Below are positions 1,904 to 51,890 of a DNA stretch of 64,000 nt, piece by piece. The stretch covers positions 558,001-622,000 of the forward strand of contig NZ_LJWX01000001.1 in NCBI RefSeq assembly GCF_001431705.1, given 5' to 3'. Source of the stretch: Ferrovum sp. JA12 (lineage in GTDB: Bacteria; Pseudomonadota; Gammaproteobacteria; Burkholderiales; Ferrovaceae). A program made the translations under genes and the position numbers. Numbering within the stretch: position 1 is the first letter of the stretch; every line of letters begins with the position of its first letter. The notes under the pieces are model-generated. The model was not told the origin of the DNA, searched no databases, and worked only from the letters and a program-made list of their open reading frames with translations.

Positions 1904-3322
1904 TTAGTCAGAATGGTGTGTGTTAATGCTCACATGCGTTGTTGCTTGCTCTTTCGCAACGTGGTCGTTCAGTTTAGAAAGGTGATCTCTGAATGTTGGT
2001 TTATTCGATTGCCCCATATTTTGATCGGTAGAGCTCGGCGCACCACCAATTCCAGCAGCTTGACCAGATCCACTAGGTGAAGCCGATTGACCAGGTAAAG
2101 GTCTGACATTAGACGATCCAGTAGTTATGGGGGACGCAGACGATTGCGTAACTCCTGTTAAAGGTGATGACTCTGGTTTTGGATTGTTTCCTATAGATGA
2201 AGGGTGATTTCGCATCTCTTGTAAAGACATTTGTGGGGATTTTTTTGGGGAAATTGGGGCGTCTCCTACCACTGGAGAATCAAAGCCACGAGTTCCAGAT
2301 GAAGAAGCATCTGATACAGATCCGGAATTTCCCAAACTTTTCATGAAGTCACTCATTGTCTGACCGGCTTTTGTCGCCGAGTCAGCCACTGCACCAGCAC
2401 CAGATCCTGCAGCAGCACCTAAAGCCGCTCCTGCCGCAGCCGCAGAAGCCACATCAGCTGTACCCATATTTGTACTACCGCCAGCCAGAGAGGCAGCAAT
2501 TGAGTCCGATTTCCACACAAGATATACGATGACAGGGAACGAACATAACATCGCAAAAATAACCTTTATTATTGAGCCCCAATCAAATGGATTGCCCCAT
2601 GAAAAACTATCTAGCTGTACGCCAGCGACATCAATGATCTTGCCGAAAGCAGAATAAACAATTCCAAGTAAAATTATTCGATACACCAAAGAGATTAAAG
2701 ATTTGAATGGTGCAATGCCCTGATCTTTTAAAGCATTCAATCCAAGGAAAGAAAAACTCAGTGGTGACATCATTACAATTAAACCTAATTCTAATTGCAG
2801 CATAATGAGTTTTATTGCCATAAACATTCCTGCTCCGAAGACAGTAAATAAGATCACTACCAGCACACTACCGATAGAGCTATTTCCAACCCCTGCTATT
2901 GATGTGCCAGTCGCGGCTATTCCAATTAAAATAGAAGAGCATAGGCTAAGTGTGGCAGTAATGACTGAACCTGGGCTAGGTAAATTAGGCGCAAATTTAG
3001 TCAATACACCATTACCTACAGAGTCAATGTATTCAGGTCCATTTTTTAAAACATAGATACAAAAACTGAACCACATCAAACTGCCTAAAAATTTTGCCCA
3101 AAAAGAGGTCAAATCACCCTCACTTTTTAGTACGTGGAGGTTTGTCACTACAAATTGTATGGACATGAGTGATCCGAGCCAGATCAGCGCCTGCGGCATG
3201 ATGGATGCACTTGCGAGTTTAATCGCCTCATTAACAGTATTAACTATTGAAATATCTGGTGTATCGGCAGCATGTGCGACTTTGAAAGAAAATAACAAAA
3301 TTAAAAATATGAGAGTTTTCAT
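1904..3322 (-). CDS. trbL: TrbL/VirB6-type conjugal transfer membrane protein
   Basis: The protein has 472 residues with a cleavable signal peptide (cleavage near AHAAD, residue 19). Several hydrophobic segments follow between about residues 40 and 270, with the central pattern FMAIKLIMLQLELGLIVMMSPLSFSF expected of TrbL proteins. The Ala/Gly-rich stretch (about 290-320) and the long Ser/Pro/Gly-rich C-terminal tail are also typical. TrbL is the polytopic inner-membrane channel component of P-type type IV secretion. The start ATG overlaps the stop of the preceding lipoprotein gene, which implies translational coupling. The gene order trbJ - small lipoprotein - trbL matches the RP4 trb operon and supports the call. 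Confidence 0.88.
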   Translation of the reverse strand: MKTLIFLILLFSFKVAHAADTPDISIVNTVNEAIKLASASIMPQALIWLGSLMSIQFVVTNLHVLKSEGDLTSFWAKFLGSLMWFSFCIYVLKNGPEYIDSVGNGVLTKFAPNLPSPGSVITATLSLCSSILIGIAATGTSIAGVGNSSIGSVLVVILFTVFGAGMFMAIKLIMLQLELGLIVMMSPLSFSFLGLNALKDQGIAPFKSLISLVYRIILLGIVYSAFGKIIDVAGVQLDSFSWGNPFDWGSIIKVIFAMLCSFPVIVYLVWKSDSIAASLAGGSTNMGTADVASAAAAGAALGAAAGSGAGAVADSATKAGQTMSDFMKSLGNSGSVSDASSSGTRGFDSPVVGDAPISPKKSPQMSLQEMRNHPSSIGNNPKPESSPLTGVTQSSASPITTGSSNVRPLPGQSASPSGSGQAAGIGGAPSSTDQNMGQSNKPTFRDHLSKLNDHVAKEQATTHVSINTHHSD

Positions 3323-8248: not shown

Positions 8249-8608
8249 ATGGCAAGGCCAGAAAAGTTGGATGCAGAGAAGTTCACAAAATCAGTTGCCT
8301 TTCGGATGACTGAAGGCACGTTCAAGATGTACGAAAGAAAATTTATGGCTGCCGGTTTAAAGCAGTCTGAATTTTTCCGACTCCATGTTGTTAACAATAC
8401 AACTCTAGTTGTCGCTAAATCACCTACTGCCTCGCGAGCTGTTTTGCTTCTGTCCAAAGCATCCAATAATTTAAATCAGCTTGCACACCGAGCAAATGCT
8501 GCGAATCTTTCAAGAACAATTTCCGATGATACGTTCAAGGTAATCTCAACCCAATTACAACTTCTCAATGACTTCATGTTGTCTCAGGTGCAAGAGGCCA
8601 GTCAATGA
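8249..8608 (+). CDS. mobC: MobC-like relaxosome accessory protein
   Basis: The protein has 119 residues. The N-terminus KSVAFRMTEGTFKMYERK has the strand-helix pattern of a ribbon-helix-helix DNA-binding domain. The C-terminal part contains LLLSKASNNLNQLAHRANAA, close to the NLNQLARxxN segment conserved in MobC proteins. MobC binds oriT and helps the relaxase open the nick region. A strong AAAAGGAGA ribosome site precedes the start. Its stop overlaps the relaxase start as ATGA, so the two are coupled, and the repeat-rich oriT candidate lies just upstream. Confidence 0.8.
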   Translation: MARPEKLDAEKFTKSVAFRMTEGTFKMYERKFMAAGLKQSEFFRLHVVNNTTLVVAKSPTASRAVLLLSKASNNLNQLAHRANAANLSRTISDDTFKVISTQLQLLNDFMLSQVQEASQ

Positions 8609-11451
8609 TTGTTGAAGTTGGCGGAGCTGATGGCGGGTTCAAAGAGTATTTGGAAACTGGCCGCAAGAAAGGGCGTGAGCTTCATCGCGACCAGCTCGAT
8701 CAACGGATTCCATTGTTCGGGGACTTAGACGTGTTTGAAATTTCCACTTCGGCACATGAAGGTAAGGGTCATCGCTATGATCACGTTACCTTGTCTTTTT
8801 CAGAAAATCACGTCACAGATGAAATGCTCCAACGTGCCGTTGATGAGTTCCGTAACCATACGTTTGCAGCATGGCCAGAATCAGAGCGACACAGAATCGC
8901 GTTCTATGCAGAAGCTCATCGTCCAAAGATGCTTAGTTACACCAACTCACTTACAGGTGAAAATGTAGAACGCCTGACGCATATTCATATCGGCATTGGC
9001 AAGCGTGATTTACTCACAGGTAAATCTATTGAGCCACTTGGATTCCTCGGGCAAGCCTCAGACAACCTTAAATACATTGATGCATTCCAAGAATCATTTA
9101 ATGCGAGGCATGGCTTTGCTAGTCCTAAAGATAATCCAAAAATCACGCCAGAGAATGCTGTCGATATTTTAGCGCGCTACACCGGCGCAAAGCCCAATGC
9201 ACTCGGAACTTTTAACGAAAAAAAAGCCAGTCTTGAAATTACTCTGCAGAAGGAAATACTAGCGAAAAATATTACCACTTGGGATGACTTTGGCAAGTTG
9301 CTTGAAGTTCATGGGGTCGTTTCCAAGATGCATGAAGGCCAGTTCAATGAGAGTTTCAGGATAAAGCCACACGGATCAGATCGAGCTATGCGATTAAAAG
9401 GTGTGTTTTTTCAGCGTCAATTCATCGAGCGTTCAACCGATGAAAAACTTGCTGTTATTTCCGACAAAGCAAAAATTGCATACTTTGAACAAATGCAGCC
9501 CAGAAAAGAACCTAAATATGTTGCGTCAATTTTGGAGGAGTGGCACCAAACCAAGGCGCGCGAAATTCGCTATATCCATCAAAGCAGCAAATTCTACAAA
9601 GAAGTATACAAACCTGCTGATGCCGAAACGCGTCAGCAACTTTTAGACGAAATCGAAAGGAAACATCATGGCCTCACCAGTTCTGTCTCAAATCATGGAC
9701 GAAAAGAAAATACCCCCACCAGAAATCGCCTGCCAGGATTGCAGCCACGCGACATGGATGGAATTCAAAGCCGGAGTGAAATGTTACTGCGCGATAACGA
9801 TGGCGTGGATGTACGAACCGAGCCATCACGAGAGCAAGATCGTTTGGGCTTGCGACAAGCAGATGAGCGTGGAGGAGGCGATGGAGCCAATGCCAGCGGT
9901 GCCACCGATTCGACAAGCAGAGAGTCAGACGGCAGTAGTGACAGAGGAGATCATACAAACTCAGGAAGCACCAGTAAGCCTGTTCGAGGATATGGACATC
10001 AAATCTCCAGCAGAGCCAGCCGGACCGAACAGCTTCATGAACTTCAACCATCCAGCATAATCGGGCGTGTTACTGCCGAACAGCGCGAGCGCTACGAGTT
10101 GGCGGCAGATAAAGAGCGATATGCAGAGATTCGCAAGAATCTGGATTGCGCACAGCTACTAAGTCTACTTTCACACAGTCATGGCCTCAACCTTGAGAAG
10201 TACCAAGTAGCGACCGCAACAGATGGCAGTCCACGTATCCAAGCTGGAAGCCGTGCTCTCACACCAAGTGATTTTTTGATGAAGGAATTGGGCTTGCCAT
10301 GGAAAGAGGCTGCGCCGATTTTGCGCCAAGTTTATGAACATCAAATTAATAGTCAGGTAACAAAGCCACGTAACGTAAAGGCAGCACCATCGATTCTTTG
10401 GATGGACTTCAAAGCCATGCGCAAAGTAACTGACGCAGAGCTATCTCAGCGTCTTAAGGTGTTTGATGGTGTAGCTAAAGCACACCGCACGGCCCTTGCT
10501 GAAAAGCTTAAAGCAGAGCAGGCGGCCACCCTTGCCGGACTTTCAGGCACGGCTAGAAAAGCTGCACATTCACTAGGAAAACTCAAAGCTGCTACTGCAA
10601 AAGCAGAACTTAATGTCGCACTTAGTGAAGAGCGCCAGATCTTACGTGATTCTATCCAACCAAATCAGGCGAATGCCTGGCGCCTTTTCTTGCAGGACCG
10701 CGCTCAAGATGGCAACGAAGAGGCGCTTGTGGCCTTTCGAGAGCTAGACGATACCGCGCGCGCCGTACAGCTTACTACACCATCAATTGGCACCATTATT
10801 CTAGTGGATGATGAGGATGAGCAAAAGCGCAGGCGTCTTGCTAGAAGAGATTATGCGGCAAAGGTGTTATCAAACCTTGTGCAGACTGTAGATAAAAACA
10901 GCGACATTACCTACCGACTGCGTGGTCATGCGGTCCTTAGAGATGAAGGTAGACACCTTGCAGTTTTGGATGAAAACAGTGATGAAGCCATTGTTGCAGG
11001 CTTGTTGCTGGCACGTGAAAAGTTTGGTAGCAATTTAACACTTACTGGTTCTGCTGCCTTCCAGAAGCGCGTGATTGAGGTTGCCGTAGCCCAAGGCATT
11101 GCCATCAAGTTTGTAGATCCTCAGCTAGAAGCAATGCGCGTGCAGCTCACAAGTGAAAAACGTCAGTTATCTCGCACACCACCAACCATAGAGAAGCGAG
11201 TGCAAGAATCTGATCCATATCTCGGTATGACCAACACTGAGAGAATTTTGGCTGAGCGTAAAGTTGCGAAAACACAAGCGAGGGCGGCAGACGAGCTAGC
11301 ACGTCAAGCGCGGATCAAAGAGTCTGCACTTGAGACCGTCCTACCACAGGTAGAGGTTGTAGAGATGCGCGTTGCCGAAGATGTTGTCGTTAAGTTGCCA
11401 CCAGAGCCCACAAAGGTTAATAAACACAAGGGTGTAGACAAGGGACGTTGA
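8605..11451 (+). CDS. Conjugative relaxase (HUH type) with C-terminal LPD7-like domain
   Basis: The protein has 948 residues. The N-terminal nuclease domain spans about 1-270. Y15 in GGFKEYLETG is the likely nucleophile, H126-I-H128 in LTHIHIGIG is the HUH metal motif, and histidines in GHRYDH and EAHRPK may complete the site. A long Arg/Ser/Asp/Gly-rich, probably disordered linker (about 355-485) overlaps a second gene in another frame. The C-terminal part contains the pattern LRDEGRHLAVLDEN ... GLLLAREKFG (about 778-810), which matches the LPD7 domain found on relaxases. The MOB family is not assigned with confidence. It nicks oriT and pilots the strand. Confidence 0.82.
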   Translation: MIVEVGGADGGFKEYLETGRKKGRELHRDQLDQRIPLFGDLDVFEISTSAHEGKGHRYDHVTLSFSENHVTDEMLQRAVDEFRNHTFAAWPESERHRIAFYAEAHRPKMLSYTNSLTGENVERLTHIHIGIGKRDLLTGKSIEPLGFLGQASDNLKYIDAFQESFNARHGFASPKDNPKITPENAVDILARYTGAKPNALGTFNEKKASLEITLQKEILAKNITTWDDFGKLLEVHGVVSKMHEGQFNESFRIKPHGSDRAMRLKGVFFQRQFIERSTDEKLAVISDKAKIAYFEQMQPRKEPKYVASILEEWHQTKAREIRYIHQSSKFYKEVYKPADAETRQQLLDEIERKHHGLTSSVSNHGRKENTPTRNRLPGLQPRDMDGIQSRSEMLLRDNDGVDVRTEPSREQDRLGLRQADERGGGDGANASGATDSTSRESDGSSDRGDHTNSGSTSKPVRGYGHQISSRASRTEQLHELQPSSIIGRVTAEQRERYELAADKERYAEIRKNLDCAQLLSLLSHSHGLNLEKYQVATATDGSPRIQAGSRALTPSDFLMKELGLPWKEAAPILRQVYEHQINSQVTKPRNVKAAPSILWMDFKAMRKVTDAELSQRLKVFDGVAKAHRTALAEKLKAEQAATLAGLSGTARKAAHSLGKLKAATAKAELNVALSEERQILRDSIQPNQANAWRLFLQDRAQDGNEEALVAFRELDDTARAVQLTTPSIGTIILVDDEDEQKRRRLARRDYAAKVLSNLVQTVDKNSDITYRLRGHAVLRDEGRHLAVLDENSDEAIVAGLLLAREKFGSNLTLTGSAAFQKRVIEVAVAQGIAIKFVDPQLEAMRVQLTSEKRQLSRTPPTIEKRVQESDPYLGMTNTERILAERKVAKTQARAADELARQARIKESALETVLPQVEVVEMRVAEDVVVKLPPEPTKVNKHKGVDKGR
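9668..10060 (+). CDS. Nested out-of-frame gene inside the relaxase gene, cysteine-rich, 130 aa
   Basis: This frame lies wholly within the relaxase gene, shifted by one frame. Its ATG has AAAGGA six bases upstream. The product has a compact N-terminal domain with cysteines and histidines spaced like a metal site (ACQDCSH, KCYCAI, HHES, WACDK; residues about 21-65) and an acidic, proline-rich tail. The relaxase frame here is a low-complexity linker, as expected where a second gene overprints a permissive segment. RP4 traH inside traI is a precedent for this arrangement, though no sequence similarity is claimed. The reading frame could still be chance, but the ribosome site and motif argue against it. 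Confidence 0.6.
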   Translation: MASPVLSQIMDEKKIPPPEIACQDCSHATWMEFKAGVKCYCAITMAWMYEPSHHESKIVWACDKQMSVEEAMEPMPAVPPIRQAESQTAVVTEEIIQTQEAPVSLFEDMDIKSPAEPAGPNSFMNFNHPA

Positions 11452-11491
11452 TTCCACTCTCATTACATGAAGCAAAGCAAAGGAGTTGGCA

Positions 11492-11647
11492 ATGAAGAAA
11501 AATGAATACCAAAAAGAGCGAAGTACGCGTGACCTTGTTCTATGTATTCCACCACTTTTAGGCATTTATCGCCTAACAAGTGAGGGGTTAAAACAAGTTC
11601 GCATGTTACATGGAGTTGAGTATGCGCCCCAAGGGAAGAGAAAATGA
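11492..11647 (+). CDS. Small hypothetical protein, 51 aa
   Basis: The short gene starts at an ATG 7 bases after the AAGGAG sequence at 11480-11484, 40 bases after the relaxase stop. It encodes 51 residues with a basic N-terminus (MKKNEYQKERSTRD), a middle LCIPPLLGIYRLT segment and a basic end. Its stop overlaps the start of the metallophosphoesterase gene as ATGA, so it belongs to the operon. No family is recognised. Confidence 0.6.
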   Translation: MKKNEYQKERSTRDLVLCIPPLLGIYRLTSEGLKQVRMLHGVEYAPQGKRK

Positions 11648-12411
11648 TTTTAATGTTTGGTGATGTACACAGTGACTTTCGCCATGTGCTCCCAGTGGTG
11701 CAAGCAGAGAAGCCTGCAGCTATTATTTTCTTAGGCGACATCCAAGCGCAGCGTCCACTTGAACAAGAACTTGCAGAGGTTATAGAACTTACCGAGGTCT
11801 ATTTCATTCCTGGCAACCATGATACAGATAGCAAAGCTGATTATGACAACCTGTTTGGATCCGCATTGGCTGACAGGAACCTGCATGGCCGCGTAGTTGA
11901 AATTGATGGACTACGTGTAGCAGGGCTAGGCGGTATTTTCCGTGAGTCAGTTTGGTATCCACAAGCAAGCGCCGAAATTGAGCCTATTTATCCAGATTAC
12001 GAAACCTATACCAGAAAGATGTTGGATGCTGAGCGCTGGAAACTTTACCGTCAAATGAGCAAGGAAGGCAATCAACCAGACAGATTGCCTGCACCACCCT
12101 TGGTGGGCAAAGCACTGCTGCACAAGAGTACTATTTTCTGGAATGACTGGATACAGTTGTACGGCCAACAAGCTGATATTTTAGTTACGCACGAAGCCCC
12201 TACTTGTCACCCTCACGGATTCCGAGGTATTGATGTATTGGCACAGAGCATGAAAGTTAAATTCACTTTTCATGGTCACCACCATGATCGATTTAATTAT
12301 TCAGCTTATGAGGAAGCATTAGGCTTTAGCGCACATGGTGTGGGCTTGCGAAGCGTGACAGATATGTATGGCGGTATGATCTTAATTGGTAACTTGGATG
12401 AGAAAAAATGA
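11644..12411 (+). CDS. Calcineurin-like metallophosphoesterase
   Basis: The protein has 255 residues with all the metal-binding motifs of the family in order. GDVHSD (D7, H9) comes first, then FLGDI (about 29-33), PGNHD (about 57-61), a lone histidine in VTHEAP (about 183), and GHHHD (about 216-220). The enzymes hydrolyse phosphodiesters or phosphomonoesters, but the substrate cannot be told from sequence. It is translationally coupled to both neighbours (ATGA overlaps) in the relaxase operon. This suggests a job in transfer or establishment, such as DNA end or nucleotide processing, which is inference. Confidence 0.82.
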   Translation: MILMFGDVHSDFRHVLPVVQAEKPAAIIFLGDIQAQRPLEQELAEVIELTEVYFIPGNHDTDSKADYDNLFGSALADRNLHGRVVEIDGLRVAGLGGIFRESVWYPQASAEIEPIYPDYETYTRKMLDAERWKLYRQMSKEGNQPDRLPAPPLVGKALLHKSTIFWNDWIQLYGQQADILVTHEAPTCHPHGFRGIDVLAQSMKVKFTFHGHHHDRFNYSAYEEALGFSAHGVGLRSVTDMYGGMILIGNLDEKK

Positions 12412-12860
12412 ACAATGAAAATAATGGAAATAAAGACCCGATGCAAGAAGTATTGGCAGCAATTGGCGCATGGACGATGCACAATTGCCAGGGCAATGCC
12501 GAAATGGCTGATGAAATTTTTAATTGCCTTATCCCGAAATTTCAAGACCGTTTCCCGCACCACAAGCTGCTTACTCACTTACGCCGAGAAGCCAGAGACC
12601 CTTTGTTAGTGTATCCAGATTCTCCATTACTCAGAGTTTATCAAGTGGCTAATCAATTGTCTGTTAAGCTTCCTTCTGGAGAAGTTCTGTTCAATGAAGA
12701 TCCAAGATTGTTGGCCGATATGTTGAGTGAGCGTGGGTTTGGTCCAGACGATATTGCCTTCGCCGATAGGCAAGAAGGCGATAGAGCCCCTGGTGATGGG
12801 GAAGCTATTGCTTTGAAATTCCGTATGCGAGAAACATTTATGAAGGGTTCTCATGAGTAA
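12408..12860 (+). CDS. Hypothetical protein at end of mobilization operon, 150 aa
   Basis: The 150-residue soluble protein has helical segments in its N-terminal half (MQEVLAAIGAWTMHN). The C-terminal half, LSVKLPSGEVLFNEDPRL and onward, may be beta-rich. Its ATG overlaps the stop of the phosphoesterase gene, so it is part of the same operon. No motif or family is recognised. The operon ends here: the following 660 bases hold no well-supported gene, only decayed or very short leftward frames between 13000 and 13437. Confidence 0.6.
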   Translation: MNNENNGNKDPMQEVLAAIGAWTMHNCQGNAEMADEIFNCLIPKFQDRFPHHKLLTHLRREARDPLLVYPDSPLLRVYQVANQLSVKLPSGEVLFNEDPRLLADMLSERGFGPDDIAFADRQEGDRAPGDGEAIALKFRMRETFMKGSHE

Positions 12861-12999
12861 TGGGGGCTAACGAGCCCAGAAAACGCAGGCAAGTTTAAAA
12901 CTCAACAGTCCTGTGGCGAATTTTGAGTGATTTTGCAATATCGGAATGAATAAAAAACATGGATTCTTGTGTGCGGGCACCACTCTGCACCAACGCCCA

Positions 13000-13158
13000 T
13001 TAACGATCTTGCTGCTCACGTTTGGCGGCATCTAACTGCTCATCTTTTAGAAAAGTGCAGGGCGCGTCTTGAATTCCGCGCCGTTTTTCCTCAGCAATTG
13101 CCTGATTCACTTCATCGACTGTAAACGCCGTTTCAACAAATTCGCCATTAATCATCAT
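13000..13158 (-). CDS. Possible small leftward ORF, 52 aa
   Basis: A leftward reading frame starts at an ATG ending at 13158 and encodes a very charged, helical product (VDEVNQAIAEEKRRGIQ; LDAAKREQQD). It lies 16 bases downstream of a broken leftward frame and could be the second gene of an old pair. No ribosome site is obvious and no family is recognised. It may be the remnant of a larger gene. Confidence 0.3.
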   Translation of the reverse strand: MMINGEFVETAFTVDEVNQAIAEEKRRGIQDAPCTFLKDEQLDAAKREQQDR

Positions 13159-13173
13159 AAGTCATAGTTTACG

Positions 13174-13437
13174 CTATGCCATCACAGCGTCAAGCTTCGT
13201 GCAATACGGCGGATATGTAGTTACAGCATTACCCTTATGGTTTACGCCACTTATCTGGATTCCCAGAATTTGTATTTCGAACTCATTAATATTAACAGCC
13301 GCTTTTGGATTTAATTTTTTTGCACGTTCAATTGCTACCGCTTGTGTGCGCTTTCAGAATTTGGTTTTCGGACGGTGCAATCGCCTTCTGGCCGACACTC
13401 TACAAAGAAGATCAGCTTCTGTAACAATCTTAATCAC
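13174..13437 (-). pseudogene. Broken small gene with an in-frame TGA
   Basis: A leftward frame from a GTG ending at 13437 reads 27 codons, meets a TGA at 13354-13356, and then continues in the same frame for 59 further codons to a TAG. Both parts look coding: IKIVTEADLLCRVSARRRL before, and AVAIERAKKLNPKAAVNINE after. The simplest view is a gene inactivated by one nonsense change, lying in the gap between the mobilization operon and the large helicase gene. No family is recognised, and the GTG start is uncertain. Confidence 0.4.
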
Positions 13438-13520
13438 ATAAAAGGCGGTTATTACATTATTTATACTTCAAACAAGTAAATTCATAATACAATTTAGAAA
13501 TAATTTATGTAGGGTGATGT

Positions 13521-16500
13521 ATGGCAATAGAACAAGAAAGACTGCTAGCCTTAATCGATTACGCTCAAAAAAGCGCTGCAATGAACAGCAAGCATGCTAC
13601 GAATGTTGCCTCTCATCTTTTTTGTAGACATGAAAATGGAATTGCAAAATTACCAGGCGTTCACCTTAACATTTCAACCGAAGATAGTGGGGATGAAGTA
13701 TGGTTAATCCTTAACCGACTTCATGAACAAAAACCACCTGATATTCTCAGCCATATACTCCAAGCTTGGATAGATCTCACCAATAACCCTACAAAGGAGC
13801 CTTCCCTTAAGAAATATATCGAAGCCCAGCAGCTCATCGAGTTGGGACTAGAAATGACATTTAAAAATGTTGAATATAAGCCTTTAGATCCTAAGCAACT
13901 TGTATTTCTTGATAGTTATGAACAGAAAAAAGAAGTAGAAACGCAACTGGAAATCTATATTAAAAATCGGTGGACTCCTTGGTCAATTGAAGAAAAAATT
14001 CGCCGCGAATCAATTAGTCTTTATAAGGCTCTCTTTACACTAAAGCAACAATTAGAGGGTTCAATAATTGAGTCACAATTAGAGCTGGTTTGGGGCACTG
14101 GTATAGCAGTTTGGAAGATGGGGGATACTTTAGTTTCATACCCATTAATTACTAGGCTGGTTGAAATTTCATTTAATGAATTGACTATGGATATAGAGGT
14201 CAGGCCAAGAGATGTAGATGCTAGGCTAGAGCTTGAAATATTTTCCGCGGCAGATAATCAGGGAGTTGCAGATTTAGAGCATATCAGCAAAGAGCACTTC
14301 TTAAATGCTAAACAAACTTTCTCTCCCTTTGATCACACAACTTTTGAGTTTTTGCTTACTTCAGCAGTTACATATCTTGATTCGCAGGGCGTTTATTGGC
14401 CAAACGAAACTGCCTCAGATGACAGGATGCTTCCTAAAGCCGAATTAGGCTTGAAGGTTACCGATACTTGGGTATTGTTTGCGAGGCCGCGCAGTACTAG
14501 TGTGTATATTCAAGACTTAGAGAGATTCAAACAACATCTTTCTGAAGGTGCGGTTATATTACCTGAAGCTATTGCATGTGTTGTGACAGAACCATCAAAC
14601 GTAAATGTTGAAATAGAGCTGCCGAGTTTTAGGGGGCTTTCTAATGTGTATGGTTCAGATGGCGGTGGATTGACCCAAACCTCTTCAGTGGCCGACTTGT
14701 TTTTCCCTAAAGCCTATAACGAAGAACAGGTTCGCATTATTCAGTTGCTGGAGCAATCACCTGGCGTGATTGTCCAAGGGCCCCCAGGTACAGGTAAAAC
14801 ACATACCATTTCAAATATCATTTGCCACAATCTGGCATTGGGGAAGCGAGTTTTAGTAACGTCCATGCGAGATCCCGCACTGAGTGTGTTGCGAGAATAT
14901 CTCCCAGAAGATATTCGTCCTTTAGCAATCAGCTTGTTGAGTAGCGAGCAGGAAGGAATGAAACAGTTTGAGTTTGCGGTTAGCAAAATAGCATCAGAAG
15001 TGCAACGTATTGACCGAGTATCCTTAGGACGTGAAATATCTCAACTTGAAACACATATCGATGGACTCCATGGGCGGATATCTAGTCTTGATCGTGCAAT
15101 AACAAAATTGGCTGTGGCAAACCTAAGCAAGTTATTGATTGATGGAGAGGCTATAGATCCGCAAGAAGCGGCTAAAGAACTTGTTACTGAGCAAGGCAGC
15201 TTCGAATGGATCGAAGATGATCTCACTATTGGTGACGAGCATAAGCCTCAATTTAATGAGAATAATATCGCCGCTTTGAGAGAGGCGAGAAGACATTTAG
15301 GTTTAGACCTTGACTATTTAGATAAGAAATTACCTGTAGTATCTTCTTTCCCAGATTCTAGAGATCTCTTGCGTGTACATCAAGATTTAGGGCAGTTGAG
15401 CAAACTTAAATCTGCTATTGAAGATGGGACAGTCCCACCATTGGCGAACTCATCAAAAGAAACGTTTCAATTAGCGTCGTCACTTGCAGAGCAAATTTCT
15501 AATATAAAGCTACTTAAAACACAACTTCATCAATCTGGACATGATTGGTTTAAAACTCTCCGAGTGAAATTAAAAAATGGTCACTCAAAAGACATTTTCC
15601 AGATGTTTGAAACATTATTAGAAGAAATAGATTCGGCAAATCAAGATAGGCGGCGTTTCCTTGAAAAACCTGTTGAAGCACCTCATGACATTGATCAAGA
15701 TCATGAGCTAATTCAAGCCGTTAATAATTTAGCTCTTGGTAAGTCTCCATTTGGAATTACAGGGATTATCGGAAAAGCTGATAAGAAAAAGACTTTACAA
15801 ACGATACGGGTTTTAAGTGCACCACCAAACGGAAATTTAGATTGGGCGCATATACTTGATTATATAAGCCATATTAAATGCCTTAGAACGCTAGTCACAA
15901 GATGGAATGTATTGGCTTCTGAAGTGTATGTTAAAAATCTACCAGCTAATGACCCCTCACATTTTCATTTGGCTGTTGACGCATTAGGCGTGTTTAGGTC
16001 TACAAAAAACCTCATCGCAGTAGAAAGAGTATTAGATGAAAAAGCTAAGGTAATAATACCTTCTTGGACTCATGGGGATGAAACTACTAATAACGAAGAA
16101 AACTTGCAAAGATTTGAGTCTTTCCTGATTCATCATCTCACACGTAATAGATTAGCGGATACATGGGCTCTCAAAGAACGATTTCAAGAAATTACTGCCG
16201 GTTGTAATGGCCGGATTATTGAAGAAATTAATTCATTTTGCACGGAAACACTTGGTAATCCACAAATACCTGATGCTCAAATGCAAGCGGAATGGACAGC
16301 TTTAATGGAAGAGTTAAGGCGTTTGCATGGGCTATCTTCACATCTTAAAGTCGTGTCTGAAAATTGTATTTTCATTCGCGAGTCTGGCGCACCTGATTGG
16401 GCTTCAAAACTTGAATCTATTCCCGTGACTCAGACAGTAGATGATTTTCTGCCTGGCTCTTGGGCACAGGCTTGGCGCCTAAGACGTTTATCCAATTATC

Positions 16501-18473
16501 TTGAGAGCATAGATGTACGTAAGGACCTTAAACAACTAAGTGTTCAAAGATCCGAAGCCGAAGCAGATTTAGCGAGAGCTTATCAAGATGTTGTTTCTAA
16601 ACGCACTTGGCATAAACTAGCATGCAATGCCACACCTAACATTCGCCAAGCACTTGCTGCTTTCTCGAATGCAATTAGCAAAATTGGTAAAGGCACTGGA
16701 AAACGTGCAGTTCGATACCGTCAGGACGCTCGTCATGCAGCAGCACAAGCAAATCCTGCTATTCCATGCTGGATAATGCCGCATTATAGAGTGTCTGAGT
16801 CTCTCCCACCTGAATTAGGAGTGTTTGATCTTGTTATCATTGATGAGGCTTCCCAGTCGGATCTAACAGCTCTACCCGCGATTCTGCGCGCCAAGAAAAT
16901 ATTAATTGTTGGAGATGATAAGCAAGTTTCTCCTGAGGGCGTGGGTATTGAAGAGGAGAAAATTCGAAGTCTTATGGCACGGTTTCTAACTAATCAAGTA
17001 GCAAATTTCCGCGCGCAAATGACTCCGGAGCGTTCTATTTACGACCTTTGTAAAGTGGTTTTTGCTCAACACTCTGTGATGCTTAAAGAGCATTTCCGTT
17101 GTGTAAGTCCAATTATCGAATATTCTAAAAGAGAGTTTTACAATAACGAACTTAAACCCTTGCGCTTACCCAAGGTTTCAGAGCGACTTGATCCCCCACT
17201 GATTGATGTGTTTGTGGAGGATGGATTCGTCAATAAGACCGATAATACCAACCTTGCTGAAGCGCATTTTATTGTTGATGAAATTGCAGCAATATGTGCT
17301 GACCCTAAAATGGTTAACCGTAGCATAGGTGTTGTATCTTTGCTGGGGGAAAAACAGGCTTTGAAAATTTGGCAGATGTTAGAAGATGAGTTGGGTCCAG
17401 AGGTCATTGAAAAGTTCAAGATAGCCTGTGGTGATGCCAGAACATTTCAGGGTAAAGAGCGAGACATTATGTTTCTCTCAATGGTAGTAGCTCCAAATTC
17501 ATCAATTACAGCATTAGGTCGTGATACGTTTTCTCAAAGATTTAATGTTGCTGCATCTCGTGCTAGAGATCGAATGTATTTGGTAAGAAGCGCTGAACTG
17601 AATGATTTAAGTGAAAAAGACCATTTACGCAGAGGTTTGGTTTCTCACTTTGTTTACCCATTTGCACAAGACGAACAACGAGTAGATGACTTACGAGAAC
17701 TTTGTGAGTCACCTTTTGAACGGGATGTTTATGATGAGCTTGTTGAACGGGGCTATCGTGTAATCCCTCAAATTAAGGTGGGAGACTTTAGAATCGATAT
17801 GGTCGTTGAGGGGAACCATGATGCAAGGCTCGCCGTCGAGTGTGATGGGGATCGCTATCATGGACCAGACAAGTGGGACGCAGACATGAATCGCCAACGT
17901 ATTTTAGAGCGTGCCGGCTGGAGGTTTTGGCGTTGTTTTGCTTCAACTTATGTAATGCACAAAGGCGAGGTCCTTCAGGATCTTGTTAAAACTTTATCTG
18001 AACGTGGAATTGAACCAATTGGAGCTGAAAATGCACCGAGAAGTGTTTATACGGAATTTCGCACTTATTCCTCGATCAAAGCTTCAGAGCAACAATCAAA
18101 AACTGATAACGAAATCTTTAATCTGGATCAACAAGATAAGGAAATCGGCGTAAATCCACTCGAAAATTCAGTGGATGATAACTTGGTTGTTTTGGTAGGG
18201 CGCAATGGTTTGCCGGTTCATGATTTTGAATCATTAGTTGTGCAATCGGGAGATCATGTCACTTACATTGATATAGCTGTGCCTGATGTAAATATCCAAG
18301 TACAGATTGTTTCTGGACCAGATAATTTAGATGCAGGCATTATTAATGAGAACAGACCACTTGCTCAAACACTTCTTGAGATGGCAGAGGGTGATGAGGT
18401 TGAACTAAGTGTACCTGGTAGACCTGTTCATACACTTAAAGTTATGCAAATTAAAAGGCACTATAGAACATAG
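13521..18473 (+). CDS. Giant SF1 helicase - Vsr-like nuclease - GreA/GreB C-terminal-domain fusion
   Basis: The protein has 1650 residues with three recognisable parts. The first is a Superfamily 1 helicase of the AAA_11/AAA_12 (Upf1-like) kind: Walker A GPPGTGKT at 420-427, Walker B DEAS at 1108-1111, GDDKQ at 1131-1135, TFQGKERD at 1308-1315 and motif VI from R1340 (NVAASRARDR). A helical insert of almost 700 residues separates Walker A from Walker B. The second is a PD-(D/E)XK/Vsr-like nuclease (MTES_1575/DUF559 style), with E1400 in SPFER, D1426 in FRIDMVV, and E1440-C-D1442 in VECDGDRYH. The third (about 1560-1645), NRPLAQTLLEMAEGDEVEL, matches the GreA/GreB C-terminal domain. The N-terminal 400 residues are unassigned. 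It stands alone, with no methylase or other partner. Defence or transcription-linked DNA cleavage is inferred. Confidence 0.85.
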   Translation: MAIEQERLLALIDYAQKSAAMNSKHATNVASHLFCRHENGIAKLPGVHLNISTEDSGDEVWLILNRLHEQKPPDILSHILQAWIDLTNNPTKEPSLKKYIEAQQLIELGLEMTFKNVEYKPLDPKQLVFLDSYEQKKEVETQLEIYIKNRWTPWSIEEKIRRESISLYKALFTLKQQLEGSIIESQLELVWGTGIAVWKMGDTLVSYPLITRLVEISFNELTMDIEVRPRDVDARLELEIFSAADNQGVADLEHISKEHFLNAKQTFSPFDHTTFEFLLTSAVTYLDSQGVYWPNETASDDRMLPKAELGLKVTDTWVLFARPRSTSVYIQDLERFKQHLSEGAVILPEAIACVVTEPSNVNVEIELPSFRGLSNVYGSDGGGLTQTSSVADLFFPKAYNEEQVRIIQLLEQSPGVIVQGPPGTGKTHTISNIICHNLALGKRVLVTSMRDPALSVLREYLPEDIRPLAISLLSSEQEGMKQFEFAVSKIASEVQRIDRVSLGREISQLETHIDGLHGRISSLDRAITKLAVANLSKLLIDGEAIDPQEAAKELVTEQGSFEWIEDDLTIGDEHKPQFNENNIAALREARRHLGLDLDYLDKKLPVVSSFPDSRDLLRVHQDLGQLSKLKSAIEDGTVPPLANSSKETFQLASSLAEQISNIKLLKTQLHQSGHDWFKTLRVKLKNGHSKDIFQMFETLLEEIDSANQDRRRFLEKPVEAPHDIDQDHELIQAVNNLALGKSPFGITGIIGKADKKKTLQTIRVLSAPPNGNLDWAHILDYISHIKCLRTLVTRWNVLASEVYVKNLPANDPSHFHLAVDALGVFRSTKNLIAVERVLDEKAKVIIPSWTHGDETTNNEENLQRFESFLIHHLTRNRLADTWALKERFQEITAGCNGRIIEEINSFCTETLGNPQIPDAQMQAEWTALMEELRRLHGLSSHLKVVSENCIFIRESGAPDWASKLESIPVTQTVDDFLPGSWAQAWRLRRLSNYLESIDVRKDLKQLSVQRSEAEADLARAYQDVVSKRTWHKLACNATPNIRQALAAFSNAISKIGKGTGKRAVRYRQDARHAAAQANPAIPCWIMPHYRVSESLPPELGVFDLVIIDEASQSDLTALPAILRAKKILIVGDDKQVSPEGVGIEEEKIRSLMARFLTNQVANFRAQMTPERSIYDLCKVVFAQHSVMLKEHFRCVSPIIEYSKREFYNNELKPLRLPKVSERLDPPLIDVFVEDGFVNKTDNTNLAEAHFIVDEIAAICADPKMVNRSIGVVSLLGEKQALKIWQMLEDELGPEVIEKFKIACGDARTFQGKERDIMFLSMVVAPNSSITALGRDTFSQRFNVAASRARDRMYLVRSAELNDLSEKDHLRRGLVSHFVYPFAQDEQRVDDLRELCESPFERDVYDELVERGYRVIPQIKVGDFRIDMVVEGNHDARLAVECDGDRYHGPDKWDADMNRQRILERAGWRFWRCFASTYVMHKGEVLQDLVKTLSERGIEPIGAENAPRSVYTEFRTYSSIKASEQQSKTDNEIFNLDQQDKEIGVNPLENSVDDNLVVLVGRNGLPVHDFESLVVQSGDHVTYIDIAVPDVNIQVQIVSGPDNLDAGIINENRPLAQTLLEMAEGDEVELSVPGRPVHTLKVMQIKRHYRT

Positions 18474-18634
18474 TTTCTAATTTAAAATTATGTATTAATG
18501 CCTATTGTTAATCTGGATAGATGCTGAAAAATAGCGTAGAATTCGGCACATTGTGTACGTCTGTGGGAAAGTTGTTAAATGTGGCGAGAAGGCCGTTGTT
18601 CATTAATATAATTTAAAAATTGAACAACGTTAGT

Positions 18635-18730
18635 TGTTGGTATTTATGTTGGTATTTTAAATTAGTAATTATTTTAATTCCATTGTATAAAGGCTTTCAG
18701 GCTTATCTTCGACTCCCTCCGTCGCACCAC
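18635..18730. other. Candidate attachment-site end of the mobile element
   Basis: The 12-mers TGTTGGTATTTA and TGTTGGTATTTT lie in tandem at 18635-18658. Arrays of TGTTGGTAT type are common arm-site repeats near the ends of tyrosine-integrase islands. About 45 bases on, TTCGACTCCCTCC followed by GTCGCACCA resembles the 3' end of a tRNA or tmRNA (T-loop, acceptor strand, CCA), the usual core of such att sites. No complete tRNA is present and the spacing is one base off a normal T-arm. This is therefore a candidate boundary, not a gene. The rest of 18474-18764 shows nothing else. Confidence 0.38.
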
Positions 18731-18764
18731 TCTTAATGGCCTGGAACCCATCAGTGCGTTCTTT

Positions 18765-19500
18765 GGCTCTTTCTCATTTAGGGGGGCAGTTTTAATCATC
18801 CACAGAGCCCCTTAACACGCACTCTGACATTCTCAAAGTTTCTGAATCAATCAGCTCTTCTTTGAATCAGTTTCATCTTACGGTGGCATCCTTCTGTAAT
18901 GCCATTAGATTTACTAAACCGCCACATTCTGGCACTCTCCTCTTTCCATGAGCTGAGTGTTTTACCTAAAGCAGCCACTGGTTTAAAGGCACTTTGTTTT
19001 AACTCAGTTAACATCGTTAGGAATACAGGAATCACTTCACCACATGCCCGTTGCGTTAAAGCTCTTTTCATCAATAGCGTATGAAGTGGTTGTTGGAAGG
19101 GATAAATGGCTGCAATAGCTGGATACCTGTCTAAGAACAGATCTCTGTTAGTCTGTTTATCTTGAGTGAGATTGTCTGGCCTGATTCTCAATAACGCCAA
19201 GATCCCTCTATTGTTTTTTATCTCACCACTGGGTTCTCTATAAGTCATCATGCACTGATGTTGAATTATAGGATATGCTTTTTTACGAACCTGTTTGCTG
19301 TGGCAGTGGCTACAACGGGCTAAGCGGTTGTATTTCACTTCTCATCATAGAGGTTGATAACCACTGACTTTTACTGTAGAAAAACCTGGTCAATTTAGGA
19401 TAATATTGTTCTTGGGGGTTTTAATCCCTTTTTTATCGCAAAATCAAGGATTTAGTTTGGGCTAAATTGATTAAAGTGCCCCCTTATTTGGTGGAGAGCC
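18765..19500. mobile_element. Internally deleted ISL3-family element
   Basis: The two ends form an imperfect inverted repeat. The left end reads GGCTCTTTCTCATTTAGG from 18765, and the right end read inward reads GGCTCTCCACCAAATAAG. Each continues GGGGGCA and then TTTAATC. A GGCTCT terminus fits the ISL3 family. At 736 bp the element is about half the usual 1.3-1.5 kb, in line with its truncated transposase. The eight bases flanking each end do not match, so no target duplication survives. It sits between the element end and the arsenic genes. Confidence 0.6.
18796..19338 (-). pseudogene. ISL3-family transposase remnant
   Basis: The open part (18847-19338, 163 residues) begins with a CxxCH zinc-finger-like N-terminus (ARCSHCHSKQ) and jumps to the C-terminal region of ISL3 transposases. 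That region includes SNGITEGCHRKMKLIQRRA, the end of the catalytic domain. The central domain with the first acidic catalytic residues is missing. An in-frame TGA at 18847-18849 interrupts the conserved RRAYGFRNF-type motif, and the frame continues FRNFENVRVRVKGLCG to a second stop at 18796. Full-length family members have about 400 residues. It is not functional. Confidence 0.75.
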
Positions 19501-19531
19501 AAAATTTTTATTAATTTAAGGTAATTTTTTA

Positions 19532-19960
19532 ATGGTCACTATTTATCACAATCCAGCATGTGGAACGTCTCGTAATACCTTGGCTATGATCCGTAACAGC
19601 GGAGAGGAGCCGATCATCATTGAATATCTGAACACTCCCCCAACCCGTGAGCTACTCATTCAGTTGATTCAGGGTGCAGGGTTAGATGTGCGCGGAGCAA
19701 TACGTCAAAAGGGGACACCCTATGAAGAATTAGGGCTTGGGAACCCCACCCTATCAGATGATGAATTATTAGAGGCTATGTTGGCTAATCCCATTCTAAT
19801 CAATAGACCCTTTGTTGTCACAAATAAAGGAACACGATTATGCCGGCCTTCAGAACTGGTATTAGATATTCTCCCTAATCCACAAAAAAATACTTTTGTT
19901 AAAGAAGATGGTGAAATAGTCATTAATATAGGGAGTGAAAGTGCTAAATCAAATGATTAA
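19532..19960 (+). CDS. arsC: Arsenate reductase, glutaredoxin-dependent
   Basis: The 142-residue protein matches R773-type ArsC along its whole length. The catalytic C10 sits in [12 protein letters not shown], and three arginines corresponding to the arsenate-binding residues can be placed (R58, R92 in NRPFVV, R105 in LCRPSE). It reduces arsenate to arsenite with glutathione and glutaredoxin. Its end overlaps arsH, so the pair is coupled. No arsR repressor or arsB/acr3 efflux gene is adjacent, so arsenite export must be encoded elsewhere. It begins just after the ISL3 remnant. Confidence 0.95.
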
Positions 19961-20663
19961 TCTTCCTAATGTTGATAAAGCATTATTTGAGTTACCAGGG
20001 ATTGAGAATTTTGCAAAGATTGGTATATCCTCTCACCGTCCACGCTTTCTTCTATTATATGGTTCTTTGCGGGAGCGATCCTACAGTCGACTGTTAATTA
20101 TGGAGGCAGCAAGACTTCTAGAGGCACTAGGGGGCGAAGTTAAAGTTTTTGATCCCAGTGGTCTCCCTTTGCCTGATGATCAGCCTGACACTCACCCCAA
20201 AGTGATTGAGTTACGAAGTCTTGCAAATTGGTCCGAGGGTATGGTTTGGTGCTCGCCCGAGCGTCACGGTGCTATGACAGGAATCATGAAAGCTCAAATA
20301 GATTGGATCCCACTCTCTCAAGGAGCGCTTCGCCCAACTCAGGGTAAAACTTTAGCCTTAATGCAGGTGTCAGGTGGTTCGCAATCTTTTAACGCTGTGA
20401 ATCAGATGCGAATTTTAGGTAGATGGATGAGGATGATTACCATTCCTAATCAATCTTCGGTGGCAAAGGCTTTTCAAGAGTTTGATGAGATGGGTAGGAT
20501 GAAAGATTCCTCTTACTATGAACGAGTCGTTGATGTGATGGAGGAGCTCTTTAAGTTCACGTTATTGACACGCGATATTTCAATCTATCTAACAGATCGA
20601 TATAGTGAACGCCGAGAGAGAGCAGAAGAACTGTCTCTAAGAGTGAATCAAAATAGCCTTTAG
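19941..20663 (+). CDS. arsH: ArsH, NADPH-dependent FMN reductase / organoarsenical oxidase
   Basis: The protein has about 240 residues with the flavodoxin-like FMN-binding motif [11 protein letters not shown] and the ArsH signatures [15 protein letters not shown] and [14 protein letters not shown]. ArsH proteins reduce FMN or quinones and oxidise trivalent organoarsenicals. The start is uncertain. A GTG at 19941 has GGGAG at a good distance; a GTG at 19935 is too close to it, and an ATG at 19953 is too far. All three overlap arsC, so the two genes are translationally coupled. Confidence 0.92.
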
Positions 20664-51440: not shown

Positions 51441-51890
51441 ATGGAACTTAACACAATTAAACCTGCTGATGGCGCAAAAAAAGATCGTCGACGTGTTGGC
51501 CGTGGTATTGGTAGTGGTCTTGGTAAAACTGCTGGTCGCGGTCATAAAGGTCAGAAAAGCCGATCTGGTGGTTTTCACAAGGTTGGTTTTGAGGGGGGGC
51601 AAATGCCTCTGCAGCGCCGTTTACCAAAACGCGGCTTCCAACCAGTTAACCGTCATGAAACGGAGCAAGTTCGTCTAGTTGATTTGATGAAAGTCAATGC
51701 AGAAGTGATTGATTTATTATCCTTAAAGCAGGCTGGCTTAGTCTCAACTTCGGCGGGCGCTGCAAAAGTCTTTTTGAAAGGCGATATTACCAAAGCTCTT
51801 AAGTTAGAAGGTCTTTTAGTGACAAAAGGTGCTAAAGACGCTATTGAAAAAGCGGGTGGTAGCGTTACCGTGGATGCAGAGGCAAACTAA
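51441..51890 (+). CDS. rplO: Ribosomal protein L15
   Basis: The protein has 149 residues (144 in E. coli). The glycine-rich N-terminus [20 protein letters not shown] and [18 protein letters not shown] are the signatures. L15 is a late assembly protein of the 50S. Its TAA overlaps the secY ATG by one base. Confidence 0.98.

What the first reader, a model, noticed from the sequence alone, without database searches (positions are those of the whole stretch)
13521..18473. Helicase-nuclease-GreA fusion: candidate new defence or polymerase-linked cleavage protein
One 1650-residue protein carries a full set of SF1 helicase motifs with an insert of almost 700 residues between Walker A (420-427) and Walker B (1108-1111). 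A Vsr/MTES_1575-like nuclease (E1400, D1426, E1440/D1442) follows. A C-terminal segment, NRPLAQTLLEMAEGDEVEL, matches the GreA/GreB C-terminal domain, the part of Gre factors that docks on RNA polymerase. Helicase plus Vsr-like nuclease is a known single-gene defence style. A Gre-type docking module on it would suggest action on DNA being transcribed, for example phage DNA, or on stalled polymerase. It lies alone in a mobile element next to a decayed region, a typical cargo spot.
Basis: partly seen in the sequence, partly recalled or inferred. Interest (0 to 1): 0.85.

Follow-up and report, generated by a model that had tools for sequence, protein, structure and literature searches.

The report
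Helicase-nuclease with swappable polymerase-docking tail
A large bacterial protein of a kind often found among antivirus genes, a DNA motor joined to a DNA-cutting enzyme, ends in the piece with which the transcription factors GreA and GreB grip RNA polymerase, so it may be steered to DNA that is being transcribed, such as that of an invading virus.

Summary
The 1650-residue ORF (13521-18473) is an SF1 helicase with an intact Vsr/MTES_1575-type nuclease, a disordered linker of about 65 residues and a complete GreA/GreB C-terminal domain. The Gre call is firm: Pfam passes its cut-off when the tail is scanned alone, a profile of eight such tails retrieves Gre-sized proteins, and the AlphaFold model best matches GreA, Gfh1 and GreB. 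The '700-residue insert' is ordinary: relatives share it.

The core belongs to an unnamed family near the anti-phage proteins Hhe and ProA (PADLOC candidate PDC-S37). In 7 of 10 plasmid loci examined, relatives lie near BREX, restriction or Wadjet-like genes.

New here: the C-terminus is an exchangeable slot. Of 31 family members, 4 carry Gre-C, 5 DUF3320-type tails, 3 other long tails, and 19 have tails under 100 residues. Gre-C also ends four distant Hhe-type proteins; one pair is 59% identical in Gre-C but only 29% in the helicase. A formal tree test did not reject a single origin (p 0.08-0.13).

Docking on RNA polymerase is inferred, not shown; it was predicted for other GreA/B-C conflict proteins (PMC8195603). 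Verdict: real, a new variant of a known kind, testable.

The parts
13521..18473 (+). gene for the 1650-residue helicase-nuclease with Gre-C tail (whole ORF with stop)
   Evidence: relatives align over its whole core
14778..14801 (+). Walker A, residues 420-427
   Evidence: invariant in 14 aligned sequences
14988..16640 (+). helical insert inside the first helicase domain, about residues 490-1040
   Evidence: AlphaFold model, mostly helical, block pLDDT mostly 70-90; fold matches unspecific
16842..16853 (+). Walker B, residues 1108-1111
   Evidence: invariant in 14 aligned sequences
17064..17588 (+). second helicase domain (AAA_12), residues 1182-1356
   Evidence: Pfam PF13087, E 1.2e-13
17715..17996 (+). 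Vsr/MTES_1575-type nuclease, residues 1399-1492 (E1400, D1426, E1440, D1442)
   Evidence: Pfam PF18741 E 1.7e-32; acids invariant in 16 of 16; fold match to Vsr 1cw0 Z 10.8
18030..18230 (+). disordered linker, about residues 1504-1570
   Evidence: pLDDT under 50
18240..18455 (+). GreA/GreB C-terminal domain, residues 1574-1645
   Evidence: Pfam PF01272; Foldseek and VIA matches to GreA, Gfh1, GreB
8249..11451 (+). MobC/NikA-like gene and relaxase-like gene of the surrounding mobile element
   Evidence: relaxase below the curated cut-off
1904..3322 (-). TrbL-like conjugation gene of the surrounding element
   Evidence: NCBIfam TrbL_P 62.1 bits, below its cut-off
18847..19338 (-). truncated ISL3-family transposase downstream
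   Evidence: covers only positions 235-354 of 370; PF01610

Best explanation
A stand-alone anti-invader effector. Shown: an SF1 helicase core with a helical insert, a Vsr-type nuclease with its active-site residues, and a flexibly tethered GreA/GreB C-terminal domain. Inferred: Gre-C docks on the rim helices of the beta-prime subunit at the secondary channel of RNA polymerase, as it does in GreA/GreB, and so places the helicase-nuclease on DNA that is being transcribed. The motor then loads at the transcription bubble or R-loop of an invading phage or plasmid, or at a stalled polymerase, and the nuclease cuts. The Gre coiled coil with its acidic tip is missing, so the tail should dock without stimulating transcript cleavage. 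In relatives the same C-terminal slot holds other modules (DUF3320-type, zinc-ribbon-like, none), so it works as an exchangeable targeting or trigger part, and Gre-C is the version that reads 'transcribed DNA'. My odds by step: Gre-C fold 0.97; exchangeable slot 0.9; defence role 0.8; docking on polymerase 0.5; cutting of transcribed invader DNA 0.4.
For: Gre-C fold. Intact motor and nuclease. Exchangeable slot. Gre-C on two helicase lineages, with 59% identity between modules whose helicases are 29% identical. Kinship to anti-phage proteins. Neighbours of relatives: BREX, restriction, Wadjet-like sets recognised from memory. Docking: the Gre globular domain binds the beta-prime rim helices (PMC7527559, passages); HelD combines UvrD-like helicase domains, a helical protrusion and a Gre-like part and enters polymerase channels (PMC7749165, passages); our domain aligns with HelD at Z 7.8; GreA/B-C domains in stand-alone conflict proteins were predicted to act on polymerase transcribing viral DNA (PMC8195603, passages). 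The proline-helix patch is the best-kept part of the tails (P1613 7 of 8, L1614 8 of 8).
Against: No binding, cutting or phage test. Several positions fixed in 27 of 27 free Gre sequences are lost in the tails (F at 1576: 0 of 8; G at 1597: 0 of 8; E at 1600: 2 of 8; the 27 include near-copies), so the surface may have changed its partner. Three of ten plasmid loci examined showed no clear defence neighbour, and of 8 neighbour ORFs scanned beside three Gre-bearing relatives PADLOC matched one. HelD's Z of 7.8 lies in the range that the tool calls common. AU tests do not reject a single origin of the family's Gre modules.
Confidence: 0.4

Rival explanations
1. A defence helicase-nuclease in which the Gre-like domain no longer binds polymerase but something else (a phage protein, nucleic acid, or the protein itself); the fold serves as an FKBP-like scaffold in a fast-changing sensor slot.
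For: The slot varies; Gre-C modules within the family differ strongly (28% between L002 and L003 whose cores are 84% identical); positions fixed in free Gre factors are lost; the fold also resembles FKBP-type domains (Z up to 8.1).
Against: Gre, Gfh1 and GreB score well above FKBPs (Z 10.5-13.4 against 8.1) and the proline-helix patch is kept.
Confidence: 0.25
2. A suicide trigger: Gre-C watches for abnormal or blocked polymerase (as when a phage shuts off host transcription), and the nuclease then cuts DNA of the cell as a whole, ending the infection with the cell.
For: A trigger domain on a long flexible linker fits; PMC8195603 (passages) proposes that GreA/B-C conflict proteins can unleash an apoptotic response through other domains.
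Against: Nothing in the sequence separates this from direct restriction of the invader; the relatives looked at keep company mainly with DNA-restricting systems.
Confidence: 0.13
3. A repair or housekeeping factor that clears stalled polymerase or R-loops, with defence secondary or absent.
For: UPF1-like helicases are the nearest solved relatives by sequence; HelD is a precedent for polymerase clearing (PMC7749165).
Against: Patchy occurrence (none of three other genomes of the genus; near full-length in 7 of 99 other relatives), mobile setting, kinship to Hhe and ProA.
Confidence: 0.1

Closest known systems
Hhe (NCBIfam NF042953; PADLOC Hhe) and ProA (NF058533), anti-phage proteins
   Same: SF1 helicase with long spacing between Walker motifs and a following nuclease region; matches over the second half of the core (Hhe 154 bits, ProA 220 bits).
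   Different: Far below both cut-offs (2000 and 1500); no DUF4011 match in the Pfam scan at E up to 1; Gre-C tail.
PADLOC candidate PDC-S37
   Same: Best PADLOC model, E 1.1e-63, stretch 917-1504.
   Different: No curated cut-off shown; the match covers 763-1350 of 1550 positions, so the ends are not covered by the best stretch; no Gre tail tested in that model.
MTES_1575 (PMC3710099, passages)
   Same: SF1 helicase, Vsr-type REase and a C-terminal region after it.
   Different: MTES_1575 has HEPN and transglutaminase domains and two C-terminal wHTH (DUF3320) where this protein has Gre-C.
TPR-GreA/B-C-PIN conflict proteins (PMC8195603, passages)
   Same: GreA/B-C in a stand-alone conflict protein, predicted to act on polymerase transcribing viral DNA.
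   Different: Those have TPR, PIN and variable N-terminal effectors; here SF1 helicase and Vsr-type nuclease, no TPR or PIN match.
HelD (PMC7749165, passages)
   Same: Helicase-like domains with a helical protrusion in D1 plus a Gre-like part; our domain aligns with it at Z 7.8.
   Different: Its Gre-like part is N-terminal with a long coiled coil, its helicase domains resemble UvrD, and no nuclease is named in the passages seen.

Membership tests
GreA/GreB C-terminal domain (PF01272) | Sequence match over the profile at or above the curated score | tested here: met
   29.7 bits for the tail alone and 30.8 in the genome search, cut-off 26.9; 24.9 in the whole-protein scan
GreA/GreB C-terminal domain (PF01272) | Same fold as Gre factors | tested here: met
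   AlphaFold model; GreA 9a7t_B (an integrative model) Z 13.4, Gfh1 2eul 12.4, E. coli GreA 1grj 12.3, GreB 2p4v 10.5
Gre transcript-cleavage factor (whole GreA/GreB) | N-terminal coiled coil with acidic tip | tested here: not met
   The stretch before the domain is a disordered linker and the NCBIfam GreA models match only from their position 80 or later
Binder of the RNA polymerase secondary channel | Binds the beta-prime rim helices | not testable with these tools
   Needs a binding assay or co-folding
Hhe (NF042953) | Score at or above the curated cut-off of 2000 bits | tested here: not met
   154.1 bits
ProA (NF058533) | Score at or above the curated cut-off of 1500 bits | tested here: not met
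   220.2 bits
PADLOC PDC-S37 | Match to the model | tested here: inconclusive
   E 1.1e-63, best stretch 763-1350 of 1550; the call gives no cut-off
TPR-GreA/B-C-PIN conflict proteins (PMC8195603) | TPR repeats and PIN domain around GreA/B-C | tested here: not met
   No TPR or PIN family among 18 Pfam families at E up to 1
MTES_1575-type REase (PF18741) | Profile match with catalytic acids | tested here: met
   111.8 bits, cut-off 38.2; acids invariant in 16 of 16
Anti-phage defence protein | Reduces phage or plasmid success in a host | not testable with these tools
   Kinship and neighbourhood only

The most novel reading that the evidence does not exclude
A defence family with a plug-in targeting slot: one helicase-nuclease chassis whose C-terminal piece is exchanged between lineages to choose what it polices (DNA through winged helices, unpaired DNA through zinc ribbons, transcribed DNA through a Gre domain that grips RNA polymerase). 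In the Gre version the cell's own polymerase, hijacked to read an invader's genes, becomes the handle by which the invader's DNA is found and cut.
Probability: 0.3. Interest if true: 0.88.

Novelty: new variant of a known kind. Interest (0 to 1): 0.62.

Why it matters
Transcription-linked cutting of invader DNA by a single protein would be a new way to find a target, and the part that would do it is small, tethered and removable, so the idea can be tested by deleting or swapping one domain. The exchange of C-terminal modules on one helicase-nuclease core would also explain why close relatives carry such different tails, and gives a natural set of swaps with which to learn what each tail does.

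Tried and rejected
1. The 680-residue insert as a distinctive feature: rejected. Relatives share it and distant ones have as long or longer spacing (match coordinates). The AlphaFold model of residues 1-1200 has mean pLDDT 60; its helical insert is the confident part, and the best fold matches there are coiled coils with Z at most 8.2, in the range the tool calls common. The N-terminal 400 residues stayed without a Pfam match and without a usable model.

2. The Gre call as chance or as an FKBP look-alike: rejected by the reverse profile search and by the Z-scores.

3. Gre tails on plasmids and phages at large: the 120-residue tail had no match among the plasmids at E 0.01 although a Microvirga plasmid copy exists (found with the whole protein), so that search is insensitive. 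The whole protein matched four phage records over 16-32% of its length and one viral contig, whose tail is 43 residues.

4. A 1238-residue open frame with a Gre match in G541 turned out to be an ordinary GreA in frame with the end of the gene before it.

5. Tree test of module exchange: the Gre tree joins L003 (this family) with L029 (Hhe-type), support 94/98 but not starred, bootstrap not settled; AU tests did not reject holding the family's modules together (p 0.122, 0.076; L002 with L003 0.125). The case for exchange rests on the identity contrast, not on that test.

6. Ends of the mobile element: a stretch like the 3' end of a tRNA gene lies at 18708-18729, but no second copy was found in the genome (38 bases with up to 3 mismatches; 19 bases with up to 2). 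The tRNA-Thr beside the integrase shares no exact stretch longer than 12 bases with the rest of the 124 kb examined. In one other genome of the genus a tRNA-Leu lies about 800 bases before the arsC homologue, about as far as this stretch lies from arsC here. Not settled.

7. Rfam at E up to 1 over 11400-20000: no match.

8. Print: searches listed no paper that I recognised as describing a Gre domain on a helicase-nuclease. These are title, abstract and count listings of the best 4 to 25 papers each from a library of openly licensed papers, so this is weak evidence of absence. Passages only were read in PMC8195603, PMC7159879, PMC12839542, PMC3710099, PMC7749165, PMC7527559, PMC10250203 and PMC12458937; no paper was read whole.

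Full report
The gene. The ORF at 13521-18473 (+) encodes 1650 residues without a stop. Pfam gives two parts of an SF1 helicase (AAA_11 from 399, AAA_12 1182-1356), the MTES_1575 nuclease (1399-1492, E 1.7e-32) and the GreA/GreB C-terminal domain (1574-1645, positions 6-76 of 77). The nearest solved helicase by sequence is UPF1 (E 2.6e-8). Walker A (420-427) and Walker B (1108-1111) are invariant in 14 aligned sequences, and E1400, D1426, E1440 and D1442 in 16 of 16.

The Gre domain is real. In the full protein it scores 24.9 bits, just under Pfam's cut-off of 26.9; the last 155 residues alone score 29.7 and the genome search gives 30.8. The genome holds two free-standing Gre proteins elsewhere (92.5 and 77.3 bits). 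A profile of eight such tails (A3), searched in 369 genomes of the class and 398 of the phylum, retrieves short Gre-sized frames at 38-50 bits; their alignment shows ordinary Gre sequence, though I did not annotate each. AlphaFold folds residues 1380-1650 into the nuclease, a disordered linker and a compact C-terminal domain with block means of 75-87 pLDDT (overall mean 67.3, 16 sequences, of which 3 reach the tail). Foldseek's first 14 PDB matches are Gre factors, Gfh1, a GreA/Gfh1 chimera or an RNA-polymerase-interacting protein. In the VIA comparison the domain gives Z 13.4 with GreA (9a7t_B, an integrative model; 76 aligned, 2.5 A), 12.4 with Gfh1, 12.3 with E. coli GreA (1grj), 10.5 with GreB and 8.1 with the best FKBP; the nuclease gives 12.4 with I-Bth0305I and 10.8 with Vsr. 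The Gre coiled coil is absent: the stretch before the domain is disordered.

The family. 18 loci in genomes of named records match the core at 49-59% (best segment), some of them incomplete, with record titles that name several phyla, mostly metagenome bins. On plasmids, 24 records have one place that covers 80% or more of the protein, at 32-42% identity. Near full-length homologues occur in 7 of the 99 other genomes of the relatives search and in none of the three other genomes of the genus. PADLOC's best models are PDC-S37 (E 1.1e-63) and Hhe (E 1.2e-32). NCBIfam gives ProA 220 bits (cut-off 1500) and Hhe 154 (cut-off 2000): a relative, not a member. The long insert is shared, is helical and matches nothing specific.

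Neighbours of relatives. I looked at ten annotated plasmid loci of relatives (in one search the stretch has no annotation; searches are distant relatives at 32-34% over 50-59% of the length) and at one Hhe-type locus (no defence gene recognised). In two Acinetobacter plasmids the gene follows brxL of a BREX cluster on the same strand, 63 bases behind it. In two Sphingobium plasmids it follows a BPTD_3080-family restriction endonuclease, in one with a methyltransferase before it and AbiE-type genes after it. A Fusobacteria plasmid has type I restriction genes about 6.5 kb away. Variovorax VAI-C (AAA ATPase, DUF4194) and Streptomyces (TIGR02678, TIGR02679, TIGR02680) have gene sets that I recognise from memory as Wadjet. 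That makes 7 of 10. Without a clear sign: Microvirga, Variovorax WDL1 (a SAM methyltransferase and a GIY-YIG nuclease are near) and Tsukamurella (a DEAD-box helicase is next to it). The two Acinetobacter and the two Sphingobium loci are not independent, and no background rate was measured. Of 8 neighbour ORFs scanned beside three Gre-bearing relatives, PADLOC matched one, a RhuM-type gene behind L002 (PDC-S05); the others include an alpha-2-macroglobulin and a penicillin-binding protein (L003) and two transposases and a carbohydrate-binding protein (L042).

The C-terminus is an exchangeable slot. From I took the 30 relatives with core identity (residues 1001-1495) of 38% or more plus the window protein, 31 in all. 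Dropped before the count: five copies of the window itself (L001, L020, L040, L049, L051), L018 (broken before the slot) and all rows at 35% or less; L013, L015 and L019 do not reach the region. L009 lacks its N-terminus, L014 is frame-shifted upstream, L052 has an internal stop, and for L052-L055 only the C-terminal half was held. Nineteen of 31 end within 100 residues of the nuclease. Four carry Gre-C: the window, L002 (Geobacteraceae), L003 (Nitrosomonadales) and L042 (Microvirga plasmid) (L002 alone scores 19.2 bits, under the cut-off). Five carry DUF3320-type tails: L010 (24.8 bits, cut-off 25) and L044 (38.7) by Pfam, L004, L009 and L016 because their tails are 55-84% identical to one another and to L010. 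L008 has zinc-ribbon motifs (DZR 20.4 bits, under cut-off). L007 has a small domain without a Pfam match that resembles the end of the distant L028 by eye only (BLAST at E 1e-3 did not join them). L055 has an unassigned tail that I read as a winged helix by eye. Of 38 longer tails of near and distant relatives, 8 match GreA_GreB and 11 DUF3320 at E 0.01.

The module moves. Four distant Hhe-type proteins (cores 27-31% identical to this family's) end in Gre-C as well: L029, L031, L072 and L043, the last a Rhizobium protein with 1108 bits to Hhe, still under its cut-off. L002 and L003 are 84% identical in the core but 28% in Gre-C; L003 and L029 are 29% in the core but 59% in Gre-C (63.5% over 74 residues by BLAST); L002 and L072 are 28% and 43%. 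Fast change in place could explain the first pair but hardly the second. The Gre tree agrees (L003 with L029, 94/98; with the window protein 86/90), but AU tests on 74 columns do not reject keeping the family's modules together (p 0.122 for four, 0.076 for three, 0.125 for L002 with L003). In G342 a Gre-like frame with a stop lies just behind a helicase whose tail resembles the DUF3320-type ones. Helicase-linked Gre tails are rare: 2 of 369 class genomes including this one, and in the phylum draw this genome and the split case G342 of 398.

Mechanism. Shown: motor, intact nuclease, tethered Gre-C. [quoted passage not shown] HelD, with UvrD-like domains, a helical protrusion and a Gre-like part, enters polymerase channels (PMC7749165); GreA/B-C domains in other stand-alone conflict proteins were predicted to act on polymerase transcribing viral DNA (PMC8195603). 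Inferred: Gre-C holds this helicase-nuclease to transcribing polymerase, and motor and nuclease act on the DNA there. Against a simple copy of Gre docking, the tails have lost residues that are fixed in 27 of 27 free Gre sequences (F1576 and G1597 positions 0 of 8, E1600 position 2 of 8), while the proline-helix patch stays (P1613 7 of 8, L1614 8 of 8, A1615 7 of 8). That this patch holds the polymerase contacts (GreB S119, D121, P123) is my recollection and comes from no call. PMC7527559 reports that S124L in the globular helix of GreA cripples antipause activity yet keeps binding, so single positions are a poor guide.

The element. A tRNA-Thr at genome position 548258-548333 is followed by a tyrosine integrase (548507-549697) and, about 4 kb on, an OLD-family nuclease (best PADLOC model Old) and a DUF2130 gene. 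TrbL-like, MobC/NikA-like and relaxase-like genes follow inside the window, then a metallophosphoesterase gene, this gene, and a truncated ISL3 transposase. I read this as an integrated mobilisable element with two defence-type genes. Its right end is not settled.

Verdict. Real, well formed, of a known defence style with a new tail, and with good evidence that tails are exchanged. Docking on polymerase is a good hypothesis, not a result.

Noticed in passing
L113:15767-19071 (genome 553767-557071, 1-4 kb before the window): An OLD-family nuclease gene (AAA_15 plus OLD TOPRIM; best PADLOC model Old, then AriA and GajA) directly followed by a DUF2130 gene, in the same presumed element.
   Followed up: partly
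window 18708-18729: A 22-base stretch like the 3' end of a tRNA gene without a tRNA; single copy in the genome; a tRNA-Leu lies at about the same distance from the arsC homologue in another genome of the genus. Possible integration scar.
   Followed up: partly
L007:11955-12419 and L028:691-1512 (-): A small C-terminal domain with a motif like 'REKGGALW / RDNGGALW' on two helicases, no Pfam match; BLAST did not join the two tails, so the likeness is by eye.
   Followed up: no
L041 (G342:C77, around 51569-51853): A short Gre-like frame with a stop directly behind a DUF3320-type helicase: a split or separate version of the same pairing.
   Followed up: partly
window 11644-12860: A metallophosphoesterase gene (PF00149) overlapping a 150-residue ORF without a Pfam match over cut-off, between relaxase and helicase-nuclease; role in the element unknown.
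   Followed up: no
L046:676-7509 and L121:5676-12509: On two Acinetobacter plasmids a relative without Gre-C lies 63 bases behind brxL on the same strand, as a likely extra gene of a BREX type 1 cluster.
   Followed up: partly
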